From a virus: a stretch of 49,658 nt of DNA. The notes under the pieces are model-generated. The model was not told the origin of the DNA. It saw only the letters and a program-made list of their open reading frames with translations, and made no database searches. Below, piece after piece: positions 39,124 through 49,658 of the stretch. The position numbers were made by a program, and so were the translations under genes. Each line of letters starts with the position of its first letter. Within the stretch, counting starts at the first letter, position 1. The stretch lies in IMG/VR virus record IMGVR_UViG_3300032217_000827, positions 1-49,658 of that record, one strand, 5' to 3'.

Positions 39124-41196
39124 TTAACCCCTGACTTTTCTACTTTTGATTTGATGTTTAACAACATCTCTGGCAACCTTTACCAATTCGTTAGGATTTT
39201 GGATAGTCCTAAAGTCGCTAGCGTTGTGTGTGTAACTGGTAAGGGTCTTAGGGTTGGATAAGATTTGCTTGGCATAGTCCTCGTCACCGAGCCATACCAC
39301 GCTTACATAACAGCCTTGCTGTACTAGGTTAGCGATTTTCTGGTCACATACAGCAGAGTTAGACCACTCGCCGTCTGTGAGAATAAATACTAATTTAGTT
39401 TTAGCAGTTGTATTTTCCATTATTCGTCTAGTTTCGTTTAGGCTGTCTATCGGGTCAGTACCACCACCAGCCTCTACGATACGAACGACAGAGGCATTAG
39501 CAGGGGTATCTCTGTCGTAGATTTCCTTAGCCCCATAACTAAAGGCAGATACAGATACCTTGCCGTTAATGCGTTCTATGCCACGCTTGATAACCCAAGC
39601 CGAACGGCAAGCCGAGCCGATAAGTGACCACATAGAGCCAGACTTATCTATCAAGATACTAGCCTCAATGTCGTACTCGTCGTTGCCCTCTGACCACCTA
39701 TCAAACAGTCTATCTATCTGGTTGATGTCTGCGTTCATAGCCCTACGAACATTTAACTTGCCACTAGGCTTTTCTCTATCCCACGCTGGGTCACTTTCTA
39801 TGCGTAGCAGTTCTAGTTCTTGTGCGAACAGCCTACTAGCAGTCACCTCAGACATCTCTGGGGTAAAGTTGCTAGCCCTACCTTTCTCTAGGGTAGATTT
39901 GCTACTCCTATCCTTTTGGATAGCCTTGAGTGTGTCTAAGACCTTTCGCTGTAAAGACTTATCTGCCTTAGCACGATTAACAGCCTCGTTTAATTGCTCA
40001 ACTACCTCTGACTGTTCGTTAATGAAATCGGCAGTATCAGGATTAACCTCACCTGTTTCCTCGCCAGCCTCGTTACCAGCAGACAGCCCACCGAATAGGT
40101 TGTCTGTCTTATCGCCGTCTAGGGTTAGTAAGCCCTCTTGTTCTTTCTCGCCAACTGGTCTGCCATTTCGCATAGGGGTTCGGTAGGTACAACCATTAGG
40201 GTTATGAGGTAGTGGCTCTGGCTTGCCGTCTTTATCTCTAGGTAACAGAGCAATTAGGGCTGTGATTAGTTCTTTGGCTCGGTCATACTGGCGAGGGAAC
40301 ACCAGCGTACGATATTCATTTATGATTTCGTAAATAGCCTGTGCCTTATCAAACCCATTTTTAGAAATAAACATCTGGGCAGACATCTTGCGTAATTCCT
40401 GTGAGAAATACTTACGCCCAGCCAGCAGGATAAACTGTTCGCCTAGTTTCTCTGTCTTGTTCTCTAGCAGGTAATCACCGAGCAGGGCTACCATAAATGG
40501 TCTAACGCTTGGATACTTGAGTGTTAGGTAATATTCGGCTCGGCAGTCCTCAAGGATATTAAAGACCGAGTTTCGCATAGGGTCTGCCAATTCCTCTGTG
40601 GTATAGGTGTGAACTAGGGGCTTGCCAGCCTCATCTGTCGCATACACATAAGACTTTTCTTTGGTAACTTTCTCGCCTACCCACTTACCCAACGCTGTAC
40701 CAATGCGAGGTGTAAATAGCAGGTGACCTAATTCGTGGTAGTTAAGACCCTGTAAAGATAGGACTGTGTTTTCGTCAAGTTCCTTAATCAACTTGCCAGA
40801 GAACACGATATCTTTGCCGTCATTATAGGCAGGGGCTATCTCTGTTTCGCTAACAGACACCATAACATTTAGACCAGTTAAAATCCTGTCGGCTCGTTGA
40901 TAGACAGATACAATGCTATCTAGCGTGTTGTTCCTAGTGGTGATACCACCACTAGCCCTGTCTTTCTCGCCGTCTAGGTAGATATCGTACTCCTCTTGGA
41001 TATCCATAGATAACTGTACTCGTTCGTTAAAGATTTCCTGTTCGGTCTTGCCAGTTTCCTTAATGGCTTTCTTGATAGCCTCGCTAGACCTATCCCAGTC
41101 TTTAGCGTTGTAGCCGTTTTCATTGAGCCACTCATAGAAACCTTTGCCAACGCTAATGCTTTCTATGGACTGTCTTGTAATCTTTGGCTTAGCCAT
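39124..41196 (-). CDS. von Willebrand A protein with an HExxH zincin motif, CobT-like
   Basis: 690 residues. The N-terminal half contains NYHELGHLL (His154, Glu155, His158), the HExxH zinc-protease motif, as in VWA-linked metallopeptidase families such as DUF2201. The C-terminal VWA domain has a full metal-ion-dependent adhesion site: DKSGS at 517-521, Thr near 580 and Asp near 607 (LTDGEW). A Gln/Glu-rich linker lies between. One base overlaps the AAA+ gene upstream, so the two are made together. Such MoxR-VWA pairs remodel or mature protein targets; CobS/CobT is the metal-inserting example. Confidence 0.78.
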   Translation of the reverse strand: MAKPKITRQSIESISVGKGFYEWLNENGYNAKDWDRSSEAIKKAIKETGKTEQEIFNERVQLSMDIQEEYDIYLDGEKDRASGGITTRNNTLDSIVSVYQRADRILTGLNVMVSVSETEIAPAYNDGKDIVFSGKLIKELDENTVLSLQGLNYHELGHLLFTPRIGTALGKWVGEKVTKEKSYVYATDEAGKPLVHTYTTEELADPMRNSVFNILEDCRAEYYLTLKYPSVRPFMVALLGDYLLENKTEKLGEQFILLAGRKYFSQELRKMSAQMFISKNGFDKAQAIYEIINEYRTLVFPRQYDRAKELITALIALLPRDKDGKPEPLPHNPNGCTYRTPMRNGRPVGEKEQEGLLTLDGDKTDNLFGGLSAGNEAGEETGEVNPDTADFINEQSEVVEQLNEAVNRAKADKSLQRKVLDTLKAIQKDRSSKSTLEKGRASNFTPEMSEVTASRLFAQELELLRIESDPAWDREKPSGKLNVRRAMNADINQIDRLFDRWSEGNDEYDIEASILIDKSGSMWSLIGSACRSAWVIKRGIERINGKVSVSAFSYGAKEIYDRDTPANASVVRIVEAGGGTDPIDSLNETRRIMENTTAKTKLVFILTDGEWSNSAVCDQKIANLVQQGCYVSVVWLGDEDYAKQILSNPKTLTSYTHNASDFRTIQNPNELVKVARDVVKHQIKSRKVRG

Positions 41197-42578
41197 TAGT
41201 TAGCCACCTCGTCTGCCTCAAGTGAAACATCAACAGCGATACCAAAGCCACTAGCGATACCAGCCTTAGCAGTATCAAAGACCAATTTAACAGCCTCTCG
41301 TTCATCATCAGAGAACGAGTTTAGATAGGTTGCTGTCGCATACTCAAGGTCTATGTTCTTTACATTTTTAACGAAAGCCTCAAGACCTCTGGTAGAGATA
41401 GGGGTATCTATCTCGCCTCGTTCGTGCTGTTCTCGCAACTGATTAGCAACCTCTAGCAAGGTAGCGTTTCCGATAAGTTTTTTCTCAATAGCCTTATCGT
41501 AACCAAACTCCCACTTGTGGGCAAACCTATCTTTCCACGCTTGGTTCATTGGTCTTGAGCCACGATAGTTAGGGTTGTGGTCACCGATAACAACTAGGTC
41601 TGGGTGTGCCTTGATTACCTCACCACCATTTTCTAGCAGTTGGATTTCTCGTCTATCGTCTAGCAGACCGAACAGAACTGTTGTAACTCGTTCTGGCATA
41701 AAGTCAATTTCGTTTAATAGCAATACGCCACCATTACGAACTAGGTCTGTAACTGGTCCGTCTTGCCACTTAAACACGCCAGCGTTCTCGGTAGGTATCC
41801 ACATACCGAATAGGTGGCTCGGCTCTAGTCCAATGTTGCTAGAGATGTTGTAGTAGCGATAGCCCCTAGAACTTGCCCAAGCGATAACACACATAGTCTT
41901 ACCTGACCCAGCGTGACCTCTGATTAGTAGGTTCTGGTTATTTGCCTTGATGATGTCCAACATCTCAAAGTCCGTTCTGGTCTTGGTAATCTTGCGATTT
42001 AGGTAACGCTTAGCCCAAGAAATATCTGGCACGCTTGCCATTTCCATTTGTAACTGTGGCTTTGCCATAGTTGGGGCTGGGGCTGGTGTTGTCGGGGCAG
42101 TCATTACAGGAACGAAAGCAACAGCCAACTCCTCGTCTGCCTCAACCTCAACTGGGGTAATCGGGTTAATGGTTACAGGGTTGGTTCTGCGATTATCAGA
42201 CACATAGTTAGATAGGCTCTGGTCACCAGCGATTAGTCTGTCGGTTAGAGTTGTGACCCAAGCCTGATGTGCTGTTCTGTTCTCTAGGCTGTACTCATAG
42301 ACACCAGTTAGGCTGGTGAGCCTACTTGATAGGGCTGTTACATTTCCGTATTTGGCATTAAATACATCTGTGCTGTTGATAGCAACTGCGACAGGTTGGG
42401 TTTCTGCGACAGTCTGGGGCAAGGTAGTTACATCTGTGACCTTGTGCCACGCCTGACCTCTGCCACGCTGTCCGTTAGATACTCGGTGAAATACTAAGAC
42501 CTCACTCTCGGTTGGAACAATTAGGGTCTGTTCCTTTCCGTCTGTTACTGGGGTAGATACCATAAGGGCGATACTCAT
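41196..42578 (-). CDS. MoxR/CobS-like AAA+ ATPase
   Basis: 460 residues. A 180-residue N-terminal region of unknown fold, then AAA+: Walker A GHAGSGKT (221-228), Walker B LLLNEID (286-292), sensor Asn335 (GDHNP) and arginine finger Arg351. The pore-type helix insert and NEID sequence are typical of the MoxR/CobS clade. It forms a module with the VWA-zincin gene that it overlaps. In some cyanophages CobS-like genes are frequent, but a B12 role here is unproven. Confidence 0.8.
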   Translation of the reverse strand: MSIALMVSTPVTDGKEQTLIVPTESEVLVFHRVSNGQRGRGQAWHKVTDVTTLPQTVAETQPVAVAINSTDVFNAKYGNVTALSSRLTSLTGVYEYSLENRTAHQAWVTTLTDRLIAGDQSLSNYVSDNRRTNPVTINPITPVEVEADEELAVAFVPVMTAPTTPAPAPTMAKPQLQMEMASVPDISWAKRYLNRKITKTRTDFEMLDIIKANNQNLLIRGHAGSGKTMCVIAWASSRGYRYYNISSNIGLEPSHLFGMWIPTENAGVFKWQDGPVTDLVRNGGVLLLNEIDFMPERVTTVLFGLLDDRREIQLLENGGEVIKAHPDLVVIGDHNPNYRGSRPMNQAWKDRFAHKWEFGYDKAIEKKLIGNATLLEVANQLREQHERGEIDTPISTRGLEAFVKNVKNIDLEYATATYLNSFSDDEREAVKLVFDTAKAGIASGFGIAVDVSLEADEVAN

Positions 42579-43052
42579 AAGATTTGATACTTTCTGTTAG
42601 TTGTGGGGCAGACCTCTTGCCTGACCTCTCTCTCCGATTTTATGCGATAGACACGACATTACCTAGAGCCATAAACCTAAATAAGCATTTATTAACCTAT
42701 TGTTCATCTAGTTTCTGGGCTTCCTGCCGAAAGTACCAAGTACAACGCCAAGTACAGAAATTACGGGGCTTTGCTTATTTCTTTGTTTCTATCTCTTATA
42801 GAGAGAACTAATAGAGAGTAAGGGATAGGTGTAGCCCTAGTAACTAACCAACAGAGGAACAGGCTGTACATCTGGGCTTATCCCTGCCTCTCTCTCTGTA
42901 TTGCTGGGCAGTAGCCTAGCCATTACCACAGTTTCGGCTATTTAGCAAGGATTATAACGAAATCGTTATAATCTCTCTATTCGGCTCATAGCATACTCTC
43001 TCTCTATAGTCAATAGGGTATCTCTCTCTGTTATGTAATCGTTATAACCAAG
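42579..43052. promoter_or_regulatory. Gene-free region with repeats, possible origin or operator
   Basis: No supported gene. It holds three AAGTAC repeats (42731, 42738, 42750), CT- and GA-rich tracts, a Thr/Ile-poor AT-rich stretch, the inverted repeat at 42950-42973 and a further TCGTTATAA half-site at 43039-43047. The leftward promoter of the AAA+ gene must lie here. Repeats plus AT-rich DNA would suit a replication origin or an operator region. Confidence 0.45.
42950..42973. repeat. Perfect 11-bp inverted repeat (operator-like)
   Basis: GATTATAACGA, AA, TCGTTATAATC. A dyad of this length suits a dimeric repressor. A half-site recurs at 43039-43047 and GTTATAAC there is itself symmetric. 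Candidate regulators are the two Cro-like proteins nearby. Confidence 0.75.
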
Positions 43053-43096
43053 ATTAACCCGCCGTTAGCTCTCTGTTAACCTGCTGTTTACCTTGA
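43053..43096 (+). repeat. 11-bp repeat array I1 (reversed)
   Basis: Four 11-base units in phase: ATTAACCCGCC, GTTAGCTCTCT, GTTAACCTGCT, GTTTACCTTGA. They face right, opposite to all the other arrays, and lead straight into hairpin H1 with no promoter or gene. This may be the edge unit of the cassette region. Confidence 0.6.
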
Positions 43097-43109
43097 TGTG
43101 CTATGCGTT

Positions 43110-43203
43110 TTGTTACGTTGGTAGCCTTTTAGCCTTAACTATGCGATCGAGCGTAGCGAGCACGCACGGCACGGCTAAGGCTAAAAGGCTACCAACTCAA
43201 CAA
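43110..43203. repeat. Hairpin H1 (degenerate outer end)
   Basis: 21 perfect pairs: 43117-43137 with 43176-43196. The next outer seven bases are TTGTTAC against TCAACAA, pairing except for two positions, so it fits the CCAACTCAACAA family with one worn end. The loop contains GATC and a GAGC-rich mini-hairpin. Confidence 0.8.
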
Positions 43204-43217
43204 TTTTGGGTATGCGA

Positions 43218-43251
43218 AAGCCCCCAAGCCAGAGAGGGGGCTTGGGGGCTT
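43218..43251 (-). terminator. Terminator after gene 43312
   Basis: AAGCCCCCAAGCC at 43218-43230 pairs with GGCTTGGGGGCTT at 43239-43251. The minus-strand T-tract is short. Confidence 0.75.
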
Positions 43252-43311
43252 CGGGCTGGTCACAGAAAGGGGAAAAAGACCAGCCTATAGCGAGGTGGGA
43301 CAAATCACCTG

Positions 43312-43449
43312 CTAATTCTTATGTTTTCCTTGTCTATACCACTTTAGAAAGTCGGTGGCACAAGTCATACATAGAGCAGTTGGGGCTACAGTTGGGTCTT
43401 TTAGTTGTGTTTTACAGACAAAGCACTTCTTACCTGTATAACTACTCAT
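43312..43449 (-). CDS. Small zinc-ribbon protein
   Basis: 45 residues, start overlapping the previous stop (ATGAGTAG). CFVC near 9-12 and CMTC near 27-30 make a four-cysteine ribbon, with a basic tail (KWYRQGKHKN). Last gene of the unit that begins at 44874. Confidence 0.68.
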   Translation of the reverse strand: MSSYTGKKCFVCKTQLKDPTVAPTALCMTCATDFLKWYRQGKHKN

Positions 43450-43780
43450 TAGTATTTGCTTTCATCTTACTAGGGTCATAGATTTCTAGCAAGGCGAGTA
43501 ATTCATTTGGGGTCATTAGTAGAGCATAACACAGTTTAGGCAAGAAATACAATGGCATTGTGTTACTTCCCTTGAGGTAATTGCCTACAGTTCCAGCAGT
43601 TACGCCAAAGTTATTACGCCTACAAAAGTCGGCTAGGGATTTATACCCTAGGTTCTTGTATCTAGCCTCTATTAGTTGTCGCTTACGCTGGCGTTCTGCC
43701 TCACGAAAGTCGTAATAGGCTTGTATTTTTTGGTGGCGAACCTCGGCTGGCTCATTTGGGTCAAAAGTAGGGTATTCCAT
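43442..43780 (-). CDS. Cro/CI-like helix-turn-helix protein
   Basis: 112 residues. A charged 35-residue lead (AEVRHQKIQAYYDFREAERQ) then RYKNLGYKSLADFCRRNNFG, TVGNYLKGSNTMPL and TPNELLALLE, an XRE-type fold related to the product at 38382-38621. It probably regulates the accessory block. TAATG couples it to the gene upstream. Confidence 0.72.
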   Translation of the reverse strand: MEYPTFDPNEPAEVRHQKIQAYYDFREAERQRKRQLIEARYKNLGYKSLADFCRRNNFGVTAGTVGNYLKGSNTMPLYFLPKLCYALLMTPNELLALLEIYDPSKMKANTNE

Positions 43781-43914
43781 TACTTACTCCTCATTGTAAT
43801 TAGTCGTGCTTGTAGTCGGGATAGGGCAATAATGACCTTACTTAGCAGTCTTATTGCTATGTGGCGTGGGCTTGGGTTGTATCTGTGCTTAGGGCTGTAT
43901 CTATTCTTATTCAT
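43780..43914 (-). CDS. Small very basic protein
   Basis: 44 residues, about a third Arg and Lys (NKNRYSPKHRYNPSPRHIAI), then a helix (LLSKVIIALSRLQARL). ATG lies inside the previous stop. Probably binds nucleic acid; function unknown. Confidence 0.6.
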   Translation of the reverse strand: MNKNRYSPKHRYNPSPRHIAIRLLSKVIIALSRLQARLITMRSK

Positions 43915-44626
43915 TACAGCACTCCAAATTACAGTAACCACGCAAGTCCATACCTAATTCGTGGGTGATTTCAGGCTCGTTCTCATAGAACTTATCGCCG
44001 TCTAACCATTGAGCCTCGTAAGCAAAGCAGTCGCTCTCGTCAATGCTAGATAAGTTTATAGTGATGTCGGGGTATTGTCTAGCCAAGTGGTCTAACGCCT
44101 CTGCTGGTGGTGACCACGCACTTTCTAGGTGATAAGTAATCTCCAGAGAAACTGGCATAGTATCAGGGTCAGTATCGCCCATCTCACCTGCGAGAATAGT
44201 AGCCATTTCATAGACGATAGAGGCTTTGTCTGTTATCTCCCACTTAGTTCCCCAGTTACGGCAGTTCCAGTTATACCAGTCGTCACTCGTCTTACGCTCT
44301 TGTAGGATTTGGACTAGAGCCTCGTTACTATCAAAAGGCTTGCTAGTTCTATCAGCCTTGTCTATCTCTACCAAGTCAGGGTCGGCTTTGACGATTTCCT
44401 CAAAGGCTTTCTTACCCCTCTCTAGGTAGGTATCAAGGTTATCAGGCTTTACTATGTTCCATAGCAAGAATACTCCCTCAACCTGCTCGGCTGGGATAGT
44501 GGTGTTGTCCCAGTTAGTTTCTCCAGCCCAAGGTGTAGTATAAGGCGTGGCTAATCTGTTCTTTATCTCTGTTACTGTATCGTAGTCACCAATGAGAGTG
44601 ACCTTACTGCTAGCCCAATTCGGCAT
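43907..44626 (-). CDS. Api92/DUF1281-like protein, ferredoxin-like fold
   Basis: 239 residues. MPNWASSKVTLIGDYDTVTE at the start, NCRNWGTKWEI in the middle and LEITYHLESAWSPP later follow the Api92-like/DUF1281 family of plasmids and phages. Members have been linked to plasmid antirestriction regions, but the biochemical role is not settled. A single-base overlap joins it to the gene upstream. Confidence 0.75.
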   Translation of the reverse strand: MPNWASSKVTLIGDYDTVTEIKNRLATPYTTPWAGETNWDNTTIPAEQVEGVFLLWNIVKPDNLDTYLERGKKAFEEIVKADPDLVEIDKADRTSKPFDSNEALVQILQERKTSDDWYNWNCRNWGTKWEITDKASIVYEMATILAGEMGDTDPDTMPVSLEITYHLESAWSPPAEALDHLARQYPDITINLSSIDESDCFAYEAQWLDGDKFYENEPEITHELGMDLRGYCNLECCNE

Positions 44627-44874
44627 TAGTTCTCCTCTTTCTGCTTGATTAGAAACTCTAAATCATCAGCGAGTTCATACCCAGTCTGGGTGAACTCAAT
44701 GTGACCTGATAGTGTTTGCTGTGCCTCTCCAATGAACTCTGACCATACTCTATCTACATCTGCTCTATCTAAGCCTGTATCGGTAAAGTAGGTCTTGTCC
44801 CACCACTCCACAATGATTTCATCATCTAGAGCGTTTCTCTTTAGTATCTCTGCGATTAGGTCTTTTACCTTCAT
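44626..44874 (-). CDS. Small acidic helical protein
   Basis: 82 residues, first gene of its unit. MKVKDLIAEILKRNALDDEIIVEWWDK, then an acidic body. AAAGGA and a CAATTC/GAATTG leader hairpin lie ahead of the ATG. Function unknown. Confidence 0.65.
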   Translation of the reverse strand: MKVKDLIAEILKRNALDDEIIVEWWDKTYFTDTGLDRADVDRVWSEFIGEAQQTLSGHIEFTQTGYELADDLEFLIKQKEEN

Positions 44875-44953
44875 CTCTCAATTCCTTTCTGTGAATTGTA
44901 ATACGAGTTTATACCCATCTCTCTCTAAATAGCAACTCTCCTGCGTGTATTCC

Positions 44954-44986
44954 AGGTAAACATTAGATGAACAACAGGTGAACAGA
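44954..44986 (-). promoter_or_regulatory. 11-bp repeat array I2 and promoter of unit 44874
   Basis: Three phased 11-base units (plus-strand reading AGGTAAACATT, AGATGAACAAC, AGGTGAACAGA) adjoin hairpin H2. A -10-like TGCTAT (minus strand, 44929-44934) lies 20 bases downstream of the array, closer than in the other units. Confidence 0.6.
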
Positions 44987-44991
44987 ACCAG

Positions 44992-45066
44992 CCAACTCAA
45001 CAATTTAGCATTTAGCCCGATCTTTTATTAGGGGGTTTCGGGCTAAATGCTAAATTGTTGAGTTGG
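44992..45066. repeat. Hairpin H2
   Basis: 29 perfect pairs (44992-45020 with 45038-45066) around a 17-base loop. The outer 12 bases are the family sequence; the inner stem starts TTTAGCATTTAGCCCGA. The loop opens with the TC of GATC. Confidence 0.95.
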
Positions 45067-45073
45067 GAAGAGA

Positions 45074-45104
45074 CCCCTAGCGACAATGAACGAAACGCTA
45101 GGGG
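45074..45104 (-). terminator. Terminator-like hairpin beside H2
   Basis: CCCCTAGCG at 45074-45082 pairs with CGCTAGGGG at 45096-45104; weak T-tract on the minus strand. Confidence 0.65.
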
Positions 45105-45136
45105 GCTCTTATGCCAGAGAACCAGTCTGGCTTGGG

Positions 45137-45170
45137 TTGAGGGGCTGGGCTGGGAGAACCAGCCCCTCAA
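45137..45170 (-). terminator. Second hairpin after gene 45180
   Basis: TTGAGGGGCTGG at 45137-45148 pairs perfectly with CCAGCCCCTCAA at 45159-45170, ten bases past the stop codon. No T-tract. With the hairpin at 45074 and H2, three structures follow one another. Confidence 0.7.
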
Positions 45171-45179
45171 GTCTGTCGG

Positions 45180-45740
45180 TTAGTCTACCTCTACCTCTGT
45201 GTCGTCTAAATCAAAACCATACCTAGCGTCCTCTAGGTCGCTGTTGGTAATGGTAGCGTCTGCTGTAATGTCTAGGTCGTTCTCAATGTCGTCCCAGTCA
45301 TAACCTCTAGGGGCTGTTACCTCTAGTGTGCCAGTAATGGTAATGTTTACTGTTCTTGTGACTGTATCCTCAATGCCGAAGATTTCGCATAGTTCGTTAC
45401 GAACTTCCTCGTCAATGTCGCTCCAGTTGTCGTCAAGGTAGTCCTCAAGTTTGCCAACTTTTCGGCTTAGTTCCTGCCACTTTACATACCACTCTTGCTT
45501 TTCGGTTTCTAGGCTTTTTAGGTTTTTGTGTAGGTGAGTAAGTTCGTGGCGAATAGTTACCTTTTCGCCCCCAGTTACCCAACCATTATCTATGTAGCCA
45601 TAGAACTTTACATCTAGCCCTAATACATCTGCTAGTGGCTTTACTGGTGTTGTTGCTAGTTCGGTCAGACCTGCCTCTGCGAGTTTCTCCTCAACAGTTA
45701 GTTCTGGCTTTGGTTCTTGGTTCTCTTGGTTCTCATACAT
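45180..45740 (-). CDS. Acidic coiled-coil protein, unknown
   Basis: 186 residues from the ATG at 45740, preceded by GAAAGAGAG; the frame is open further upstream but that part runs through hairpin H3 and the promoter. Order: acidic N terminus, a helix with KVTIRHELTHLHKNLKSLE (coiled coil, about 80-130), and a beta-rich C terminus (TVNITITGTLEV) with many Asp. Function unknown. Only gene of its unit. Confidence 0.68.
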   Translation of the reverse strand: MYENQENQEPKPELTVEEKLAEAGLTELATTPVKPLADVLGLDVKFYGYIDNGWVTGGEKVTIRHELTHLHKNLKSLETEKQEWYVKWQELSRKVGKLEDYLDDNWSDIDEEVRNELCEIFGIEDTVTRTVNITITGTLEVTAPRGYDWDDIENDLDITADATITNSDLEDARYGFDLDDTEVEVD

Positions 45741-45820
45741 AGTAATCTCTCTTTCTGTAGGTTGTGTATTGCTATGTATTACTATTATGCCAGTCGGGGG
45801 TGGCAAAACCCAAATCCTAC

Positions 45821-45864
45821 AGGCAAACTCTAAGTAAATGTTGTGTGAACAGCAGGTAAACGGC
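45821..45864 (-). promoter_or_regulatory. 11-bp repeat array I3 and promoter
   Basis: Four phased units (plus-strand AGGCAAACTCT, AAGTAAATGTT, GTGTGAACAGC, AGGTAAACGGC) directly left of H3. The minus-strand -10 CATAAT lies at 45784-45789. Confidence 0.65.
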
Positions 45865-45866
45865 TC

Positions 45867-45932
45867 CCAACTCAACAAGCCTTTAGCCCGATCTTTATTA
45901 GGGGGCTTCGGGCTAAAGGCTTGTTGAGTTGG
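45867..45932. repeat. Hairpin H3
   Basis: 25 perfect pairs (45867-45891 with 45908-45932), 16-base loop. Family outer 12 bases, inner GCCTTTAGCCCGA. Inner stem and loop are close to those of H2, including GATC at the loop edge. Confidence 0.95.
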
Positions 45933-45936
45933 CACG

Positions 45937-45977
45937 AAAAAACCCCCCAGCGAGAACCTTGGGAGTTCGCTGGGGGG
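45937..45977 (-). terminator. Intrinsic terminator of unit 46407
   Basis: CCCCCCAGCGA at 45943-45953 pairs with TCGCTGGGGGG at 45967-45977; the A-run at 45937-45942 is the minus-strand T-tract. A second hairpin (TTATCGGGT/ACCCGATAA, 45983-46012) lies between it and the stop. Confidence 0.9.
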
Positions 45978-46014
45978 CTGTATTATCGGGTAATCTCCTC
46001 AGAACCCGATAAAT

Positions 46015-46407
46015 CTAACTAGGCTGGTGAGCCTCTGGTTCTCCATTGCCGAAGATGTGGTTTAGGTCTGAGGTGCTGATTTCTCTAGGTATCCATTCAC
46101 CATCTATTAGGACTTTATCATTCACTAACTCACTAATAGCCCCCGAGTATAGGTCAAAATAAAAAATGTATAAATCAACCTTTTGTAAATCCTCTATTGT
46201 TTCGGGGCTGTCGTAGCCGAACTCCTTCCACCTGTTTTGGTGCTCAAAGTCTAGGCTAGCCCAGTCTAATTGAATGTTAGCCGTATAAATTGGGACTGCC
46301 CCGTCGGCGTATTCGTGAGCAATGTCCTCGGGGTAAGGTCGCCCTAAAATCCACTCTCGGTTATCCCAAATTTCTTGGTTGATTTCTGTTTCTGTCCAAA
46401 GTGCCAT
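46015..46407 (-). CDS. Acidic Trp-rich protein, unknown
   Basis: 130 residues, preceded by AGAAAGAGAGAACCAGC. Trp and Tyr are frequent and the charge is acidic (WTETEINQEIWDNREW, then WIPREISTSDLNHIF). No motif. Only gene of its unit. Confidence 0.66.
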   Translation of the reverse strand: MALWTETEINQEIWDNREWILGRPYPEDIAHEYADGAVPIYTANIQLDWASLDFEHQNRWKEFGYDSPETIEDLQKVDLYIFYFDLYSGAISELVNDKVLIDGEWIPREISTSDLNHIFGNGEPEAHQPS

Positions 46408-46433
46408 TTGCTGGTTCTCTCTTTCTGTTTGGT

Positions 46434-46526
46434 GTAGTCTTTTTGGCTACTCTCTAATAGTAATGCCCCCTAATGACTTTTTAGGTAGCGAGCTGGTGAA
46501 TGTCAGGTGAACAGTAGGTAAACAAA
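46434..46526 (-). promoter_or_regulatory. 11-bp repeat array I4, promoter and leader hairpin
   Basis: Phased units at 46483-46526 (plus-strand AGGTAGCGAGC, TGGTGAATGTC, AGGTGAACAGT, AGGTAAACAAA). The -10 TACTAT lies at 46457-46462 on the minus strand, followed by GAGAGTAG. A leader stem GTAG/CTAC spans 46434-46450. Confidence 0.68.
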
Positions 46527-46530
46527 TACA

Positions 46531-46607
46531 GCCAACTCAACAAAAGCCATTTAGCCAACCCTCTTATCTAGTGGGTGTTATGGCTAAATGGCTTTTGTTG
46601 AGTTGGC
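46531..46607. repeat. Hairpin H4
   Basis: 27 perfect pairs (46531-46557 with 46581-46607), loop of 23 with an inner ACCC/GGGT stem. Inner stem AAGCCATTTAGCCA. The loop has TATC in place of GATC. Loop sequence is close to that of H7. Confidence 0.95.
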
Positions 46608-46641
46608 AAAAACCCTCCGGCAGAGTCAGGCTGCCGGAGGG
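46608..46641 (-). terminator. Intrinsic terminator of unit 47129
   Basis: CCCTCCGGCAG at 46613-46623 pairs with CTGCCGGAGGG at 46631-46641; minus-strand T-tract at 46609-46612. Confidence 0.9.
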
Positions 46642-46656
46642 CTGGTCTTTGCCGGT

Positions 46657-47022
46657 TTATCCGTAAGTCAGTTCACCGAAAATCGCATACTGGATAACCA
46701 AATCACCGAAACAAGCGTCAGGGTCTTCTATGTCTAGGGAGTAAGTGCCACAGTGCTTTTGCCCAGAGTTTAGAGCCAACTGGTAGCCCTTTGCTAATTG
46801 CGCTAGCGTAACGGTGTGCCACTTGTCTTCTTCTTGGTCATACAACTTGAAATCCTGTGGGTTAGGCTCGTAGTCTGGCAAATGCCAAAGGCTAATCTTG
46901 CTACCATCAGGCTTACGGATTTCGGTTGCCCAGTAGGTAATACCTGCGCCATCACTGCCCCAGATACCTTCCCACAAATCGTCAAGCGAAACCTCTACGC
47001 TTACAGAAATTACCTCGCTCAT
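46657..47022 (-). CDS. Unknown protein, SxWEGIWGSDG type
   Basis: 121 residues. SVEVSLDDLWEGIWGSDGAG then WATEIRKPDG and YQLALNSGQKHCG suggest a compact alpha/beta fold typical of actinobacterial phage and plasmid accessory proteins. ATG overlaps the previous stop. Function unknown. Confidence 0.66.
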   Translation of the reverse strand: MSEVISVSVEVSLDDLWEGIWGSDGAGITYWATEIRKPDGSKISLWHLPDYEPNPQDFKLYDQEEDKWHTVTLAQLAKGYQLALNSGQKHCGTYSLDIEDPDACFGDLVIQYAIFGELTYG

Positions 47023-47129
47023 TAGTATCCTGCCTTTTCTAGAATAGCAAGCACAGTATCTACCTGCTCATCGGTTAGTTGCTCTATTGCTTCGGTGTTG
47101 ATTACACCCTCGCCGAATAGGTTTTCCAT
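47022..47129 (-). CDS. 35-residue leader-type protein
   Basis: 35 residues with AGAGAGAACC right before the ATG. Acidic helix (EAIEQLTDEQVDTVLAILEKAG). First gene of its unit and coupled by TAATG to the gene downstream, so its translation may set that of the next gene. Confidence 0.58.
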   Translation of the reverse strand: MENLFGEGVINTEAIEQLTDEQVDTVLAILEKAGY

Positions 47130-47150
47130 TGGTTCTCTCTTTTCTCTTTG

Positions 47151-47244
47151 GTAGCCCCTCTTGGCTACATAGATAACTCTATACCACAGGCGACCAGACA
47201 AGGTAGCCAGTGAGTAAATGTAAGATGAACGTTAGATGAACAGA
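47151..47244 (-). promoter_or_regulatory. 11-bp repeat array I5, promoter and leader hairpin
   Basis: Units at 47201-47244 (plus-strand AGGTAGCCAGT, GAGTAAATGTA, AGATGAACGTT, AGATGAACAGA). The -10-like TATAGA is at 47178-47183. Leader stem GTAGCC/GGCTAC spans 47151-47168. Confidence 0.68.
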
Positions 47245-47246
47245 TG

Positions 47247-47324
47247 TGCCAACTCAACAAATAGCCAAATAGCCACTCGACGATCAGGAGAAAAGTGGCT
47301 ATTTGGCTATTTGTTGAGTTGGCA
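47247..47324. repeat. Hairpin H5 (longest stem)
   Basis: 31 perfect pairs (47247-47277 with 47294-47324), 16-base loop containing GATC. Inner stem ATAGCCAAATAGCCACT, itself built of two AGCCA units. Confidence 0.96.
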
Positions 47325-47325
47325 T

Positions 47326-47363
47326 AAAAAAGCCCCAGAGCGAAAGGGGGTCGCTCTGGGGCT
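47326..47363 (-). terminator. Intrinsic terminator of unit 48179
   Basis: AGCCCCAGAGCGA at 47331-47343 pairs with TCGCTCTGGGGCT at 47351-47363; A-run at 47326-47331. A second hairpin AGAGTAGG/CCTACTCT (47370-47397) includes the last codons of the gene. Confidence 0.9.
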
Positions 47364-47390
47364 GTGGTTAGAGTAGGGAAATGAGAGAAC

Positions 47391-47645
47391 CTACTCTAAG
47401 TTTGTTTCGTTATTTAGTATGTAAAGCACATACAAAGTTTCTGTTTTGTCTGTATGAACAAAATTATACTTAGGAAACTTTCTGCGTAAATAAGTTATTT
47501 CGCTTCGCTTTACAGGGTTATTGTAAATAGCCCATTGGTTCGGGTATTTTGTAAGTTCTGTTAGAAACGGCTCAATGTTTCTAATAGTGCTTCCTGCTCT
47601 GCCTTTTCTTGGAACTAGGCTTTCGTCAATAAACTTGATTTCCAT
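47391..47645 (-). CDS. Small basic protein, unknown
   Basis: 84 residues. Basic alpha/beta pattern (PNQWAIYNNPVKRSEITYLRRKFPK) with a final strand (TETLYVLYIL). It looks like a small nucleic-acid-binding fold, unproven. Coupled to its neighbour by TAATG. Confidence 0.62.
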   Translation of the reverse strand: MEIKFIDESLVPRKGRAGSTIRNIEPFLTELTKYPNQWAIYNNPVKRSEITYLRRKFPKYNFVHTDKTETLYVLYILNNETNLE

Positions 47646-47770
47646 TAGTTTTCCTCACTATTTATTAGTTGCTCTAAATCAAATAGGGCTTCCTCTGCTG
47701 TTGTAGCCCCATCTTGCCAGTCACTAAAAATTGCCTTTATTGCCTTTGCTTCTTTGTCGCTTAGTTCCAT
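47645..47770 (-). CDS. Small acidic helical protein
   Basis: 41 residues, all helical (SDKEAKAIKAIFSDWQDGAT, then AEEALFDLEQLIN). ATG and stop both in TAATG overlaps. Function unknown. Confidence 0.6.
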   Translation of the reverse strand: MELSDKEAKAIKAIFSDWQDGATTAEEALFDLEQLINSEEN

Positions 47771-47964
47771 TAGTTTTCCTCCTCATTTTCGCCAAAGGCT
47801 TCTCTGGCTTCTTCCATTAGTCGCATAGCCTCATCTATGGCAGAGCCTATGGTAATCATACCGAGGGTTCGTTTTTCCTCTGGCGTGATTAGCCCTTTGT
47901 ATTCATTACAGGTCGGGCAGTAATCGCCCTCGGTTTCTGTTCCGTCAAACTCGCAGATACGCAT
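47770..47964 (-). CDS. Small zinc-ribbon protein
   Basis: 64 residues. C4 plus a CPTCNEYKG pair near 17-20, with an acidic helix after it (EAMRLMEEAREAFGENEEE). Coupled to both neighbours. Function unknown. Confidence 0.62.
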   Translation of the reverse strand: MRICEFDGTETEGDYCPTCNEYKGLITPEEKRTLGMITIGSAIDEAMRLMEEAREAFGENEEEN

Positions 47965-48179
47965 TAGTCCTCCTCCTCCTCATCACGGCAGTCAAAGCAA
48001 GAGCCGTCAAGGTCTAACTCATTCTCGCAGTCATCACAGACCTTGTGTATCTCAAAGTCCTCAGTTGAGGTGTAATACTGGTTCAGGTTCGCCAGAAAGT
48101 TCTTTTCTGCCTCAGCCTCACTATTGCCACTCACGATACCCTCGTGTTCATAGGTAGCAACTATCTTGTATTTTGCCAT
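47964..48179 (-). CDS. Small MAKY-type protein with zinc ribbon
   Basis: 71 residues from the ATG at 48179, placed right after GAGAGAACCAA; an in-frame ATG at 48203 would lack this. MAKYKIVATYEHEG, a helix, then CDDCENELDLDGSCFDC. It joins the MxKY fold of the 37-38 kb genes to the ribbon seen at 37698-38030, as if those two were fused here. First gene of a four-gene unit. Confidence 0.66.
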   Translation of the reverse strand: MAKYKIVATYEHEGIVSGNSEAEAEKNFLANLNQYYTSTEDFEIHKVCDDCENELDLDGSCFDCRDEEEED

Positions 48180-48207
48180 TTGGTTCTCTCTTTCGTTTCT
48201 CATTTAT

Positions 48208-48298
48208 GTAGCCTTTTGACTACTCTCTAATACTAGGGCATAGGGCACGCCCACAGGTAGCCGTCAGGTAAAAGCCAGATGAACAACAGATGAACAAA
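48208..48298 (-). promoter_or_regulatory. 11-bp repeat array I6, promoter and leader hairpin
   Basis: Units at 48255-48298 (plus-strand AGGTAGCCGTC, AGGTAAAAGCC, AGATGAACAAC, AGATGAACAAA). The -10 TAGTAT is at 48230-48235, followed by TAGAGAGTAG. Leader stem GTAGTC/GGCTAC spans 48208-48223. Confidence 0.7.
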
Positions 48299-48304
48299 TC
48301 GCCC

Positions 48305-48372
48305 CCAACTCAACAAAAAGCAACACGCCACGATTTATAGGGGGATCGGCGTGTTGCTTTTTGTTGAGTTGG
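48305..48372. repeat. Hairpin H6
   Basis: 25 perfect pairs (48305-48329 with 48348-48372), then a bulged A and four more pairs (CGAT/ATCG). Inner stem AAAGCAACACGCC; GATC is at the right edge of the loop. Confidence 0.95.
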
Positions 48373-48375
48373 CAT

Positions 48376-48418
48376 AAGAAAACTCCCCTGCCAGTTTCAG
48401 CAGGGGAGTCCTTTTCTT
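48376..48418 (-). terminator. Intrinsic terminator of unit 48849
   Basis: ACTCCCCTGC at 48382-48391 pairs with GCAGGGGAGT at 48400-48409, flanked by AAGAAA and TTTTCTT, so it works both ways. Confidence 0.9.
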
Positions 48419-48429
48419 GAGAGAGAAAC

Positions 48430-48849
48430 CTATTTGTTTCGCCAAACCTCAATTTCTTCTTCGGTTGCGAGCCTGAACACTAACTTACCAGTGCCCATTG
48501 GCTCATCATGACTTGAACGGATTACGCTTAGTTCATCGCCCTCTAAAGTGAAACGGAGGGTAAAATCGCCGTTTATGGATAGGCTCTGGATAATTGAGTT
48601 AGTAGTCGCCTGTGCAATAGTATAGCCGCTTAATCTCTGCCAGCCGATACCATCTCCGCCGATGTGCAACAAGTCTGTGTCCTTAATGTCGTTAGCAATT
48701 GCCCATTGCATAAACATAAACGCCTCAAAGTTTTCTTTTTGATCGTTCCAGCAGTCGCCATAGCAGTATTCGTTAGGCACTAAGTTGTCCTCATCGTCAT
48801 AACTCTCGCAAGTGCAGTCGTTGGTTAGTGCAAGTGTAAATTTTTCCAT
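48430..48849 (-). CDS. Unknown acidic protein with N-terminal cysteines
   Basis: 139 residues from the ATG at 48849, behind CAAGAGAGAGAATAAAAATT; upstream in-frame codons run through the promoter. Cysteines near 12, 14, 29 and 33 (CTCESYDDED, CYGDC) may bind a metal. The second half is beta-rich (GDFTLRFTLEGDELSVIR). Function unknown. Confidence 0.64.
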   Translation of the reverse strand: MEKFTLALTNDCTCESYDDEDNLVPNEYCYGDCWNDQKENFEAFMFMQWAIANDIKDTDLLHIGGDGIGWQRLSGYTIAQATTNSIIQSLSINGDFTLRFTLEGDELSVIRSSHDEPMGTGKLVFRLATEEEIEVWRNK

Positions 48850-48871
48850 AATTTTTATTCTCTCTCTTGTG

Positions 48872-48969
48872 AGCAAGTTCTCTTGCCTTGCTTCACTTAC
48901 TACAATACACCACGCCAAGCCTGCTAGGTAAACGCTAGGTTGATGTTAGGTGAACACTAGGTGAATAAA
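48872..48969 (-). promoter_or_regulatory. 11-bp repeat array I7, promoter and leader hairpin
   Basis: Units at 48926-48969 (plus-strand AGGTAAACGCT, AGGTTGATGTT, AGGTGAACACT, AGGTGAATAAA). -10-like TATTGT at 48902-48907. Leader stem AGCAAG/CTTGCT spans 48872-48892, different in sequence from the GTAGCC stems of other units. Confidence 0.68.
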
Positions 48970-48972
48970 CCT

Positions 48973-49046
48973 GCCAACTCAACAAAGCCACAAAGCCAAC
49001 CCTTTGATCTAGGGTGGATATGGCTTTGTGGCTTTGTTGAGTTGGC
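48973..49046. repeat. Hairpin H7
   Basis: 26 perfect pairs (48973-48998 with 49021-49046), then an ACCC/GGGT mini-stem in the loop, which carries GATC. Inner stem AGCCACAAAGCCA. Confidence 0.95.
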
Positions 49047-49048
49047 GC

Positions 49049-49090
49049 AAAATTCACCCACTGTTCATCTCTGAACAGCAGGTGAATTTT
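49049..49090 (-). terminator. Terminator built from 11-bp repeat pieces
   Basis: AAAATTCACC (49049-49058) and CTGTTCA (49061-49067) pair with TGAACAG (49072-49078) and GGTGAATTTT (49081-49090), with a CA/CA inner loop. The arms are made of the same GTTCA/GGTGAA words as the 11-bp arrays. Confidence 0.8.
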
Positions 49091-49097
49091 TGGTGAA

Positions 49098-49433
49098 CTA
49101 GTTGCCTAGTGTTTCACGCCTAACCTCAGTAATGACTTTGATTAGTTGTAAAATTGCTAAATCGAGGTTATCGAAATCGCCATAATAAACGCCGGTTGCG
49201 TCAGTGTTGCCGTCCTCATCAACCTCAATTTTCTCGATGTGGTGAACTTGCCAAACAATAATGCTCGAATAAGTACTTGAGCCCGTTCTGACTTTGCCCT
49301 CTAGTGTTGCCCTAACATCGCCGTGAACATAGAAACTAAATTCTAGTTCGCCCTCAGTTTGGACTAGGTTTAGTCCTAGACTTGTGAACTGCTCGAAAAT
49401 ACCCTCAGTGAATTTCGAAAGTGATTTTATCAT
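49098..49433 (-). CDS. Beta-rich protein, unknown
   Basis: 111 residues from the ATG at 49433, behind GAGAGAGAACCAAA. Alternating strands (LVQTEGELEFSFYVHGDVRATL, then SIIVWQVHHIEKIEV) and a C-terminal helix. No motif. Only gene of its unit. Confidence 0.64.
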   Translation of the reverse strand: MIKSLSKFTEGIFEQFTSLGLNLVQTEGELEFSFYVHGDVRATLEGKVRTGSSTYSSIIVWQVHHIEKIEVDEDGNTDATGVYYGDFDNLDLAILQLIKVITEVRRETLGN

Positions 49434-49487
49434 TTTGGTTCTCTCTCTACTTTGGAGAAACCCCCTTGGCTTCTCTCTACTAACTAC

Positions 49488-49568
49488 ATTACAGGATTGA
49501 CTATGAACAATAGGTATCTCTTTGGTTAACGCCAAGTGAATTAATTGTTCACCTAATGTTCATCTAAG
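49488..49568 (-). promoter_or_regulatory. 11-bp repeat array I8 with inverted members, and promoter
   Basis: Three units face as usual (49512-49544, plus-strand AGGTATCTCTT, TGGTTAACGCC, AAGTGAATTAA) and two face the other way (GTTCACCTAAT 49547-49557, GTTCATCTAAG 49558-49568). -10 TGTAAT at 49488-49493. Confidence 0.62.
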
Positions 49569-49570
49569 GG

Positions 49571-49658
49571 CCCAACTCAACAAAAATAGCTGACAACAAG
49601 TTGTCTAGCTATTTTAGCCCTATGCTATGCAAAGCATATAGCATAGGGCGTTGTTGAG
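49571..49658. repeat. Hairpin H8, branched, cut by the window edge
   Basis: Outer CTCAACAA (49576-49583) pairs with TTGTTGAG (49651-49658) at the last base of the window. Inside are two separate hairpins: AATAGCT/AGCTATT (about 49585-49613) and GCCCTATGCTA with its partner (49617-49649). It is therefore a three-way, cloverleaf-like form, unlike H2-H7. Confidence 0.85.

What the first reader, a model, noticed from the sequence alone, without database searches (positions are those of the whole stretch)
43110..49658. Family of eight long hairpins with fixed ends and variable, self-complementary cores
H2-H7 are perfect stems of 25-31 pairs. All share the outer CCAACTCAACAA, while the inner 13-17 bases differ between copies yet pair exactly within each copy. 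That is natural covariation: pairing, not inner sequence, is being kept. H1 has one worn end and H8 is branched. They are spaced 0.6-1.9 kb apart, always between gene units. Possible roles (inference): RNase III or end-protection signals, transcription insulators, DNA cruciform or single-strand recombination sites that let units be exchanged (analogous to integron attC sites, which also have fixed ends and folded variable cores), or replication signals. I know no described phage element of this form.
Basis: partly seen in the sequence, partly recalled or inferred. Interest (0 to 1): 0.88.

Follow-up and report, generated by a model that had tools for sequence, protein, structure and literature searches.

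The report
Folding DNA boundaries between phage genes
Uncultured freshwater actinophage-like viruses separate each small early-gene unit with a DNA hairpin whose ends stay fixed while its middle changes quickly yet always pairs perfectly, and comparison of related phages shows whole hairpins and whole gene units being swapped, gained or lost there.

Summary
The window has six perfect 25-31 bp stems plus one worn (H1) and one branched, truncated stem (H8). Dinucleotide shuffles never exceed 16 bp. Relatives in about 20 IMG/VR contigs give 76 distinct simple hairpins, plus branched ones. Ends are CCAAC-NN-AACAA. The 1158 core pairs hold no mismatch and no G.T pair, whereas neighbouring terminators have 31/452 G.U pairs and 15 interruptions. 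End mismatches show no strand bias (10 GU, 12 AC). The constraint is therefore strand-symmetric, which favours DNA over RNA. Each hairpin lies between the terminator of one unit and the operator/promoter of the next. Against its closest relative the window's flanks are 88-100% identical, yet most cores are replaced and still perfect. Hairpin 48305 is 96% identical to one in a distant phage, over the hairpin only, and sits exactly where the close relative carries one extra unit. Spacers also invert. Best reading: fold-back DNA boundary elements of a modular early-gene array, homogenised by template switching and exchanged by phage recombination, working like T4 PeSLs. An attC-type system is not supported, because no recombinase was found. 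What the hairpin does for the phage is inferred.

The parts
43110..43203 (.). H1, type B hairpin (TTGTT-AC-GTTGG outer arm; core TAGCCTTTTAGCCTTA; 38-nt spacer); leftmost element of the array
   Evidence: mismatches only in the central dinucleotide; orthologue L001:2440 has the identical core
44992..45066 (.). H2, type A hairpin, 29 bp perfect stem
   Evidence: orthologue L001:4413 (flanks 94% and 99%) has a different perfect core
45867..45932 (.). H3, type A hairpin, 25 bp perfect stem
   Evidence: L001:5288 orthologous; type B hairpins stand at the corresponding place upstream of the same gene family in L006:981 and L015:11791
46531..46607 (.). H4, type A hairpin, 27 bp perfect stem
   Evidence: 75-bp hairpin identical in L001:5914 although flanks differ by 8-12%
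47247..47324 (.). H5, type A hairpin, 31 bp perfect stem
   Evidence: L001:6627 flanks 100% and 91%, core changed in both arms
48305..48372 (.). H6, type A hairpin, 25 bp perfect stem; junction hairpin where L001 has one extra unit
   Evidence: promoter-side flank 98% to L001:7620, terminator-side flank 97% to L001:8260; 48301-48382 is 96% identical to L020:1016-1096 over the hairpin only
48973..49046 (.). H7, type A hairpin, 26 bp perfect stem
   Evidence: L001:9089 flanks 91% and 95%, core and spacer unrelated but perfect
49572..49658 (.). H8, type C branched element (two bulged stem-loops closed by the fixed ends), truncated by the contig end
   Evidence: complete homologues L013:9537, L013:10140, L014:1008, L057:8646
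43218..43251 (-). intrinsic terminator of the unit to the right of H1
   Evidence: (13-bp stem)
45068..45110 (-). terminator stem directly upstream (minus direction) of H2
   Evidence: (I9)
45936..45980 (-). terminator stem plus T run before H3
   Evidence: sequence
46608..46642 (-). terminator before H4
47328..47364 (-). terminator before H5
48375..48412 (-). terminator before H6
   Evidence: sequence
49047..49099 (-). terminator before H7
   Evidence: (I8)
44960..44989 (-). tandem ~11-bp repeats (TGTTCACCTGT TGTTCATCTAA TGTTTACCTGG), probable regulator sites, just downstream of H2
   Evidence: repeats read directly, role inferred
45821..45861 (-). tandem ~11-bp repeats downstream of H3
46483..46524 (-). 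tandem ~11-bp repeats downstream of H4
47202..47243 (-). tandem ~11-bp repeats downstream of H5
48252..48298 (-). tandem ~11-bp repeats downstream of H6
48920..48968 (-). tandem ~11-bp repeats downstream of H7
43442..44874 (-). unit of four small ORFs between H1 and H2 (112 aa with weak Cro/C1-HTH similarity; 44 aa; 239 aa Api92-like DUF1281_C; 82 aa)
45180..45740 (-). 186-aa ORF, unit between H2 and H3; homologues in the same array in L001, L006 and L015
   Evidence: no INPHARED match
46015..46407 (-). 130-aa ORF, unit between H3 and H4; family found at two different places in the arrays of relatives
46657..47022 (-). 121-aa ORF, unit between H4 and H5; missing in L006 and L015
47391..48179 (-). 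unit of four small ORFs between H5 and H6
48430..48849 (-). 139-aa ORF, unit between H6 and H7; homologues in L019 and L020; gene not homologous in L001 although promoter and terminator are
49098..49433 (-). 111-aa ORF, unit between H7 and H8

Best explanation
The hairpins are DNA-level, fold-back boundary elements of a modular early-gene array in a lineage of uncultured phages, probably actinophages. Each self-contained expression unit (regulator repeats, promoter, one to four small genes, intrinsic terminator) is separated from the next by one inverted repeat. The repeat's 12-bp ends (CCAAC-NN-AACAA) are held nearly constant, its inner arms change quickly, and a partly structured spacer lies between them. 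Proposed working: when the region is single-stranded during replication or recombination, each element folds back. Polymerase template switching inside the fold copies one arm from the other and sometimes flips the spacer, which keeps arms perfect while they diverge between copies. The fixed ends, shared by all copies, let phage recombination (the phage has its own RecA) join units or swap whole hairpins at the boundary without damaging promoter or terminator. A second role as a spacer that shields the next unit's regulator sites from upstream read-through is plausible. SHOWN: position, perfection, strand symmetry, turnover with conserved flanks, spacer inversion, hairpin exchange as a discrete module, and unit presence/absence at a hairpin. 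INFERRED: single-stranded folding, template switching as the cause, recombination at the fixed ends, and the benefit to the phage.
For: Unbiased census of end-defined elements: 94 inverted pairs, of which 75 have a perfect core of at least 10 bp and none an interrupted core; most of the rest are branched elements or unrelated contigs. Core 1158 pairs, 0 mismatches and 0 G.T; adjacent terminators 31/452 G.U and 15 interruptions; end mismatches 10 GU vs 12 AC in transcript orientation. Window vs L001: flanks 88-100% identical, four of six fully orthologous hairpins with replaced but perfect cores. H6 joins the promoter side of L001:7620 (98%) to the terminator side of L001:8260 (97%), and L001 has one extra unit between them. 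H6 is 96% identical to L020:1020 over the hairpin only, with unrelated regulator repeats. The same core+spacer stands upstream of different gene families (L001:5288, L015:13867, L006:4097). Type A and B stand upstream of orthologous genes. Spacer inversion between orthologues L006:100/L015:10924 and between L057 paralogues. Arm homogenisation plus spacer inversion are the two signatures of template switching (PMC8604942). Phage RecA, DnaB-like helicase, primase and Pol I are present.
Against: No experiment. Only one clear single-unit presence/absence event (window/L001) was dissected to the base; the others are gene-order comparisons. Recombination at terminator or promoter sequences also happens: the gene between H6 and H7 differs from L001 although its promoter and terminator are conserved. 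Spacers of 13-46 nt disfavour cruciforms in duplex DNA, so a single-stranded phase must be assumed. Conserved bulges in type C elements suggest direct selection on structure, which template switching alone would not give.
Confidence: 0.48

Rival explanations
1. Only the inverted pair of 12-bp ends is functional, as binding sites for a phage or host protein (architectural protein, insulator or regulator). The perfect arms are a by-product: replication template switching keeps any inverted repeat seeded by the ends perfectly paired.
For: Ends are by far the most conserved part; lineages show different central dinucleotides across many of their copies; non-standard pairs occur only in the outermost 9 positions, as expected if copying starts at the spacer; in L022 the palindrome has swallowed the regulator repeats and grown to 64 bp; spacer inversions.
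Against: Type C elements keep the ends but enclose two bulged stem-loops with bulges conserved across lineages while stem sequence changes, which points to selection on structure. Stem length stays near 24-31 bp in most of the 76 copies. The orientation of the ends flips between types A and B, which would change a two-site geometry.
Confidence: 0.22
2. RNA-level processing or insulation: read-through RNA folds into the hairpin, which is cut by host RNase III (as in the T7 early region) or blocks nucleases, separating the units' messages.
For: Place between units in a tandem early array; stem length of 24-31 bp suits RNase III (own knowledge); T7 early genes use intergenic RNase III hairpins (own knowledge); Mimivirus-type hairpins also keep pairing without sequence (PMC4402537).
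Against: 0 of 1158 core pairs are G.U while terminators in the same array have 6.9%; end mismatches show no bias to the transcript strand. Strong terminators end 3-5 nt before the hairpin, so most RNA should not contain it. A sequence-specific 12-bp end that can face either way is not an RNase III signature. No phage RNase III found, though the host would supply it.
Confidence: 0.17
3. attC-like site-specific recombination: the folded single strand is the substrate of a recombinase that moves units as cassettes.
For: Fixed ends with variable paired cores; bulged bases conserved in type C; units behave as cassettes; a varying central dinucleotide inside a fixed 12-mer resembles a strand-exchange site.
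Against: No tyrosine recombinase (PF00589), serine recombinase (PF00239) or Y1 transposase (PF01797) in seven records including 87 and 88 kb ones. Units carry their own promoters and terminators, unlike integron cassettes. Simple hairpins lack unpaired bases in the stem. No free cassette seen.
Confidence: 0.07
4. Replication or transcription-start element: hairpins serve as priming or lagging-strand start sites, or as hairpin promoters like those of N4 virion RNA polymerase.
For: One hairpin upstream of every unit, near the promoter; ssDNA folding is very stable.
Against: No single-subunit RNA polymerase match, but that search rang in no control, so this is weak. N4 promoter hairpins are 5-7 bp with 3-nt loops (own knowledge). 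Restricted to the array, not spread round the genome. No reason for core turnover.
Confidence: 0.06

Closest known systems
T4-type PeSLs (promoter-early stem-loops; Arbiol et al. 2010 GBE evq006; Comeau et al. 2014 GBE evu129; known here only through citations in PMC4503421 and PMC5931544 plus own knowledge, originals not held)
   Same: Dense intergenic elements in a fast-changing phage region of small unknown genes, tied to promoter and terminator, associated with shuffling of gene modules
   Different: PeSLs are composite promoter-terminator stem-loops. Here promoter, terminator and hairpin are separate neighbouring parts, the hairpin has a fixed 12-bp end and a 12-19 bp covarying perfect core, comes in two polarities and a branched form, and its interior is exchanged and inverted
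Integron attC sites
   Same: Fixed ends, variable folded middle, stand at unit boundaries, fold in single strands
   Different: No recombinase found; perfect stems without extrahelical bases in types A and B; units carry their own promoters and terminators
Mimivirus 'hairpin rule' polyadenylation palindromes (PMC4402537)
   Same: Pairing conserved, sequence not; at gene ends
   Different: Those act in RNA at transcript 3' ends; here fixed ends exist, an intrinsic terminator precedes the hairpin, and the constraint is strand-symmetric
T7 early-region RNase III sites (own knowledge)
   Same: Intergenic stems between tandem early genes
   Different: Here no wobble pairs, fixed ends, and the hairpin sits outside the expected transcript
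Short inverted repeats homogenised by template switching (Ripley-type; PMC8604942)
   Same: Perfect arms, spacer inversion, clustered multi-base changes
   Different: A repeated family with conserved ends at a fixed functional position in every unit

Membership tests
T4 PeSL | intergenic stem-loop in a region of small, variable early genes | tested here: met
T4 PeSL | early promoter is part of the same element | tested here: not met
   candidate promoters and regulator repeats lie downstream of the hairpin and evolve apart from it; promoter not mapped experimentally
T4 PeSL | associated with exchange of neighbouring gene modules | tested here: met
   unit presence/absence at H6 and hairpin-only identity to L020; gene-order comparison
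T4 PeSL | host phage is T4-like | tested here: not met
   Pol I and RNR closest to actinophages
integron attC | cognate tyrosine recombinase | tested here: not met
   PF00589 in 0 of 7 records, rings in 14 of 14 controls
integron attC | extrahelical bases in the folded strand | tested here: not met
   simple stems perfect; only branched type C has conserved bulges
integron attC | promoterless cassettes | tested here: not met
   each unit has its own candidate promoter and terminator
RNase III processing hairpin | RNA-level pairing (G.U tolerated on the transcript strand) | tested here: not met
   0/1158 core pairs; 10 GU vs 12 AC in ends
RNase III processing hairpin | transcribed and cleaved | not testable with these tools
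   needs RNA data
intrinsic terminator | stem followed by a T run in the direction of transcription | tested here: not met
   the T run precedes the hairpin and belongs to a separate GC-rich stem
described RNA family | Rfam match above gathering score | tested here: not met
   no match reached its gathering score
transposon/MITE | terminal inverted repeats with target duplication and dispersed insertions | tested here: not met
   confined to the array; no direct duplication seen in flanks; no Y1 transposase
template-switch-homogenised inverted repeat | perfect arms in fast-changing sequence | tested here: met
template-switch-homogenised inverted repeat | spacer inversions between relatives | tested here: met
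   L006:100 vs L015:10924; L057:2854 vs 4165

The most novel reading that the evidence does not exclude
A dedicated DNA 'cassette boundary' system unlike described phage elements: fold-back elements with fixed ends and self-templated, constantly renewed cores mark every expression unit of a phage accessory-gene array, in three architectures (A, B, branched C). They let units and hairpins be traded between phages without a site-specific recombinase, while the diversified cores keep copies too different to cause deletions by ordinary recombination.
Probability: 0.35. Interest if true: 0.85.

Novelty: new variant of a known kind. Interest (0 to 1): 0.72.

Why it matters
If right, it shows how a phage lineage keeps a large set of small, individually controlled early genes freely exchangeable without a site-specific recombinase. 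It also gives a natural record of template switching in dozens of copies (arm copying, spacer flips). The fixed ends are a ready sequence probe for finding such accessory-gene units in metagenomes. Whether the pairing is selected or a by-product can be tested directly.

Tried and rejected
Rfam on the array: only sub-threshold chance hits, mostly microRNA models that like any long stem. DNA-level search of INPHARED: nothing. Cultured relatives by protein (Cantare, Gray, Alone3, BRock regions; complete DSL-LC01): no perfect stem above 15 bp in the stretches read. GTDB genomes: exact type A pattern none; loose type B pattern ten scattered hits in unrelated bacteria, judged chance or other repeats. 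RNA polymerase family PF00940: silent even in controls, so uninformative. MITE/transposon idea: rejected, elements confined to the array and no duplication seen. Terminator idea: rejected, a separate terminator precedes each hairpin. Literature search for intergenic hairpin arrays in freshwater actinophages or phage inverted-repeat modules found nothing relevant; the PeSL originals were not held. Pfam on the array's proteins gave only one hit above its cut-off (DUF1281_C), so no candidate protein for the ends was found.
Full report
CHECK OF THE OBSERVATION. The window ends in an array of small minus-strand genes (43.4-49.5 kb). Six perfect inverted repeats of 25-31 bp with 16-23 nt spacers stand between the units, plus a worn one (H1) and a branched one cut by the contig end (H8). 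Sixty dinucleotide shuffles of the whole window never gave a stem above 16 bp, and outside these elements the window has none above 13. All eight fold as single-stranded DNA with z between -7.7 and -13.7.

SURROUNDINGS. Read in the direction of transcription (minus strand), the boundaries share one order: stop codon, a GC-rich intrinsic terminator usually ending in a T run, 3-5 nt, the hairpin, two to four ~11-bp tandem repeats, a candidate promoter, ribosome-binding site, gene. In the window and L001 the repeats read TGTTCACCTGT; in L006, L014, L015, L019 and L020 they read TATAACGNNNTGATAACG. The same hairpin ends are used with both. Repeats and promoters are read from sequence; their roles are inferred.

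RELATIVES. Scans of IMG/VR with the end pattern brought in about twenty related contigs, two of them 87-88 kb. They hold 76 distinct simple hairpins and about ten branched ones. No match exists in INPHARED at DNA level. Pol I and RNR place the phage near actinophages: Streptomyces phages Alone3 and BRock at about 40% for Pol I, and freshwater Actinomycetia phage DSL-LC01 at 79% for RNR. The cultured phage stretches read, including all of DSL-LC01, have no perfect stem above 15 bp.

ANATOMY. The ends are CCAAC-NN-AACAA. NN is TC in most lineages and CT, CC or GT in others, usually matching in both arms; L057 uses GT in its type B and TC in its branched elements. Three architectures occur: A (CCAAC outermost 5'), B (TTGTT outermost 5') and C (two or more bulged stem-loops closed by the ends; a single bulged base recurs at the same place of the first stem-loop in most copies). 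A and B stand upstream of orthologous genes in different phages (window 45867 A; L006 981 and L015 11791 B). Each arm of A and B tends to be two similar 6-8 bp direct repeats. Copies within one hairpin are more alike than copies from different hairpins (means 4.87 vs 3.34 of 6 for A and 5.13 vs 4.12 for B; p = 2e-4 by shuffling partners). Part of this may reflect subfamilies.

COVARIATION AND STRAND SYMMETRY. For 38 type-B stems, 99% of cells pair, 16 of 26 pairs change on both sides, and 202 cells do so against 55 +/- 7 in shuffles; sliding the partner by one to three columns destroys the signal. Over all simple hairpins the cores give 1158 pairs with no mismatch and no G.T. The ends give 26 non-standard of 1008, all within the outer nine positions: 10 GU, 12 AC and 4 other in transcript orientation. 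As an internal control, 32 terminators in the same arrays have 31 G.U of 452 pairs and 15 interruptions. Because the main set was collected by perfect stems, an unbiased census by ends alone was run: 75 of 94 had a perfect core of at least 10 bp and none had an interrupted core; ten of the others were branched, one had an 8-bp core, one was a duplicate pairing and seven were unrelated contigs. An RNA-level constraint should tolerate G.U on one strand; this does not.

TURNOVER. Window and L001 share six boundaries with both flanks 88-100% identical. Two hairpins are the same (H1 core, H4), four have changed cores or spacers and are still perfect. Hairpins thus change faster than their flanks, the opposite of slow pairwise compensation, which implies copying between arms or replacement of the whole element. 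Both are seen. Spacer inversion: L006:100 vs L015:10924 (same locus) and L057:2854 vs 4165. Arm homogenisation with spacer inversion is the known signature of template switching (PMC8604942). Whole-element exchange: H6 of the window is 96% identical to L020:1020 across 82 bp that end 4 and 10 bp outside the hairpin, while its flanks match L001 at 97-98%, where other hairpins stand. In L022 the palindrome has grown to 64 bp and includes the regulator repeats.

UNITS. H6 in the window joins the promoter side of L001:7620 to the terminator side of L001:8260; L001 carries one further unit between them. The gene family of the ORF at 46015-46407 occurs at two places in the arrays of different phages, and L006/L015 carry one 335-aa unit where window and L001 carry two other units. 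Not all change is at hairpins: the gene between H6 and H7 differs from L001 although its promoter and terminator match.

MECHANISM. No tyrosine, serine or Y1 recombinase was found in seven records, but the phage has RecA, DnaB-like helicase, primase and Pol I. I therefore favour fold-back during single-stranded phases, template switching within the fold, and joining of units or swapping of hairpins by ordinary phage recombination using the shared ends. This works like the T4 PeSLs but fails part of their definition (promoter not part of the element; not a T4-like phage). The main rival is that only the ends matter and perfect arms are a by-product; conserved bulges in type C and the narrow stem length speak against it but do not exclude it. 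RNA processing is less likely because of the missing wobble pairs and the terminators in front.

VERDICT. A real, recurrent and apparently undescribed element family. The description is secure (calls above), the exchange of hairpins and units is well supported, the mechanism is inferred, and its benefit to the phage is untested.

Noticed in passing
window 44960-49570 (between each hairpin and its gene); L006, L014, L015, L019, L020: Tandem ~11-bp repeats in front of every unit, of two unrelated sequences in two lineages (TGTTCACCTGT vs TATAACGNNNTGATAACG), probably sites of a phage regulator that was replaced genome-wide while the hairpin ends stayed the same.
   Followed up: partly
L022 6568-6665 and 7356-7495; L041 1171-1256: Hairpins whose stems have swallowed regulator-like repeats and grown to 36-64 bp, perfect apart from end mismatches.
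   Followed up: partly
hairpin arms, e.g. window 47261-47277: Each variable arm tends to be a tandem of two similar 6-8 bp words that change together between hairpins, so up to four copies of one word per element; unexplained beyond repeated copying.
   Followed up: partly
window 49572-49658; L013 9537 and 10140; L057 7374 and 8646; L041 2181: Branched elements closed by the same ends, with conserved single-base bulges, standing at the transcription-proximal end of the arrays, often beside inverted regulator repeats.
   Followed up: partly
window 43442-43780 (-): 112-aa protein with weak Cro/C1-type HTH similarity (E 0.015, below cut-off), conserved at the end of the array; a candidate for the regulator of the repeats.
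   Followed up: no
window end 49658; L014 start and L015 end (contig IMGVR_UViG_3300032242_001752): Contigs break inside hairpins; the 88.6-kb contig begins and ends with the hairpin end, so hairpins probably break assemblies and hide such arrays.
   Followed up: no
contig G007 positions 12590, 34970, 41361, 75219: Four exact single copies of the 12-bp end outside the array, more than chance would suggest; at least one is conserved in a relative (G002:12156).
   Followed up: no
window 39124-42578 (-): CobS-like AAA ATPase and a VWA-domain protein, a pair like those in other actinophages and cyanophages, next to a ~500-bp noncoding stretch with further regulator-like inverted repeats (42580-43110).
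   Followed up: no
L070 6-87 and 2044-2163 (Saprospiraceae bin): Long perfect hairpins of 26 and 37 bp with GGTT-rich repeats in a Bacteroidota contig; a possible separate hairpin family.
   Followed up: no
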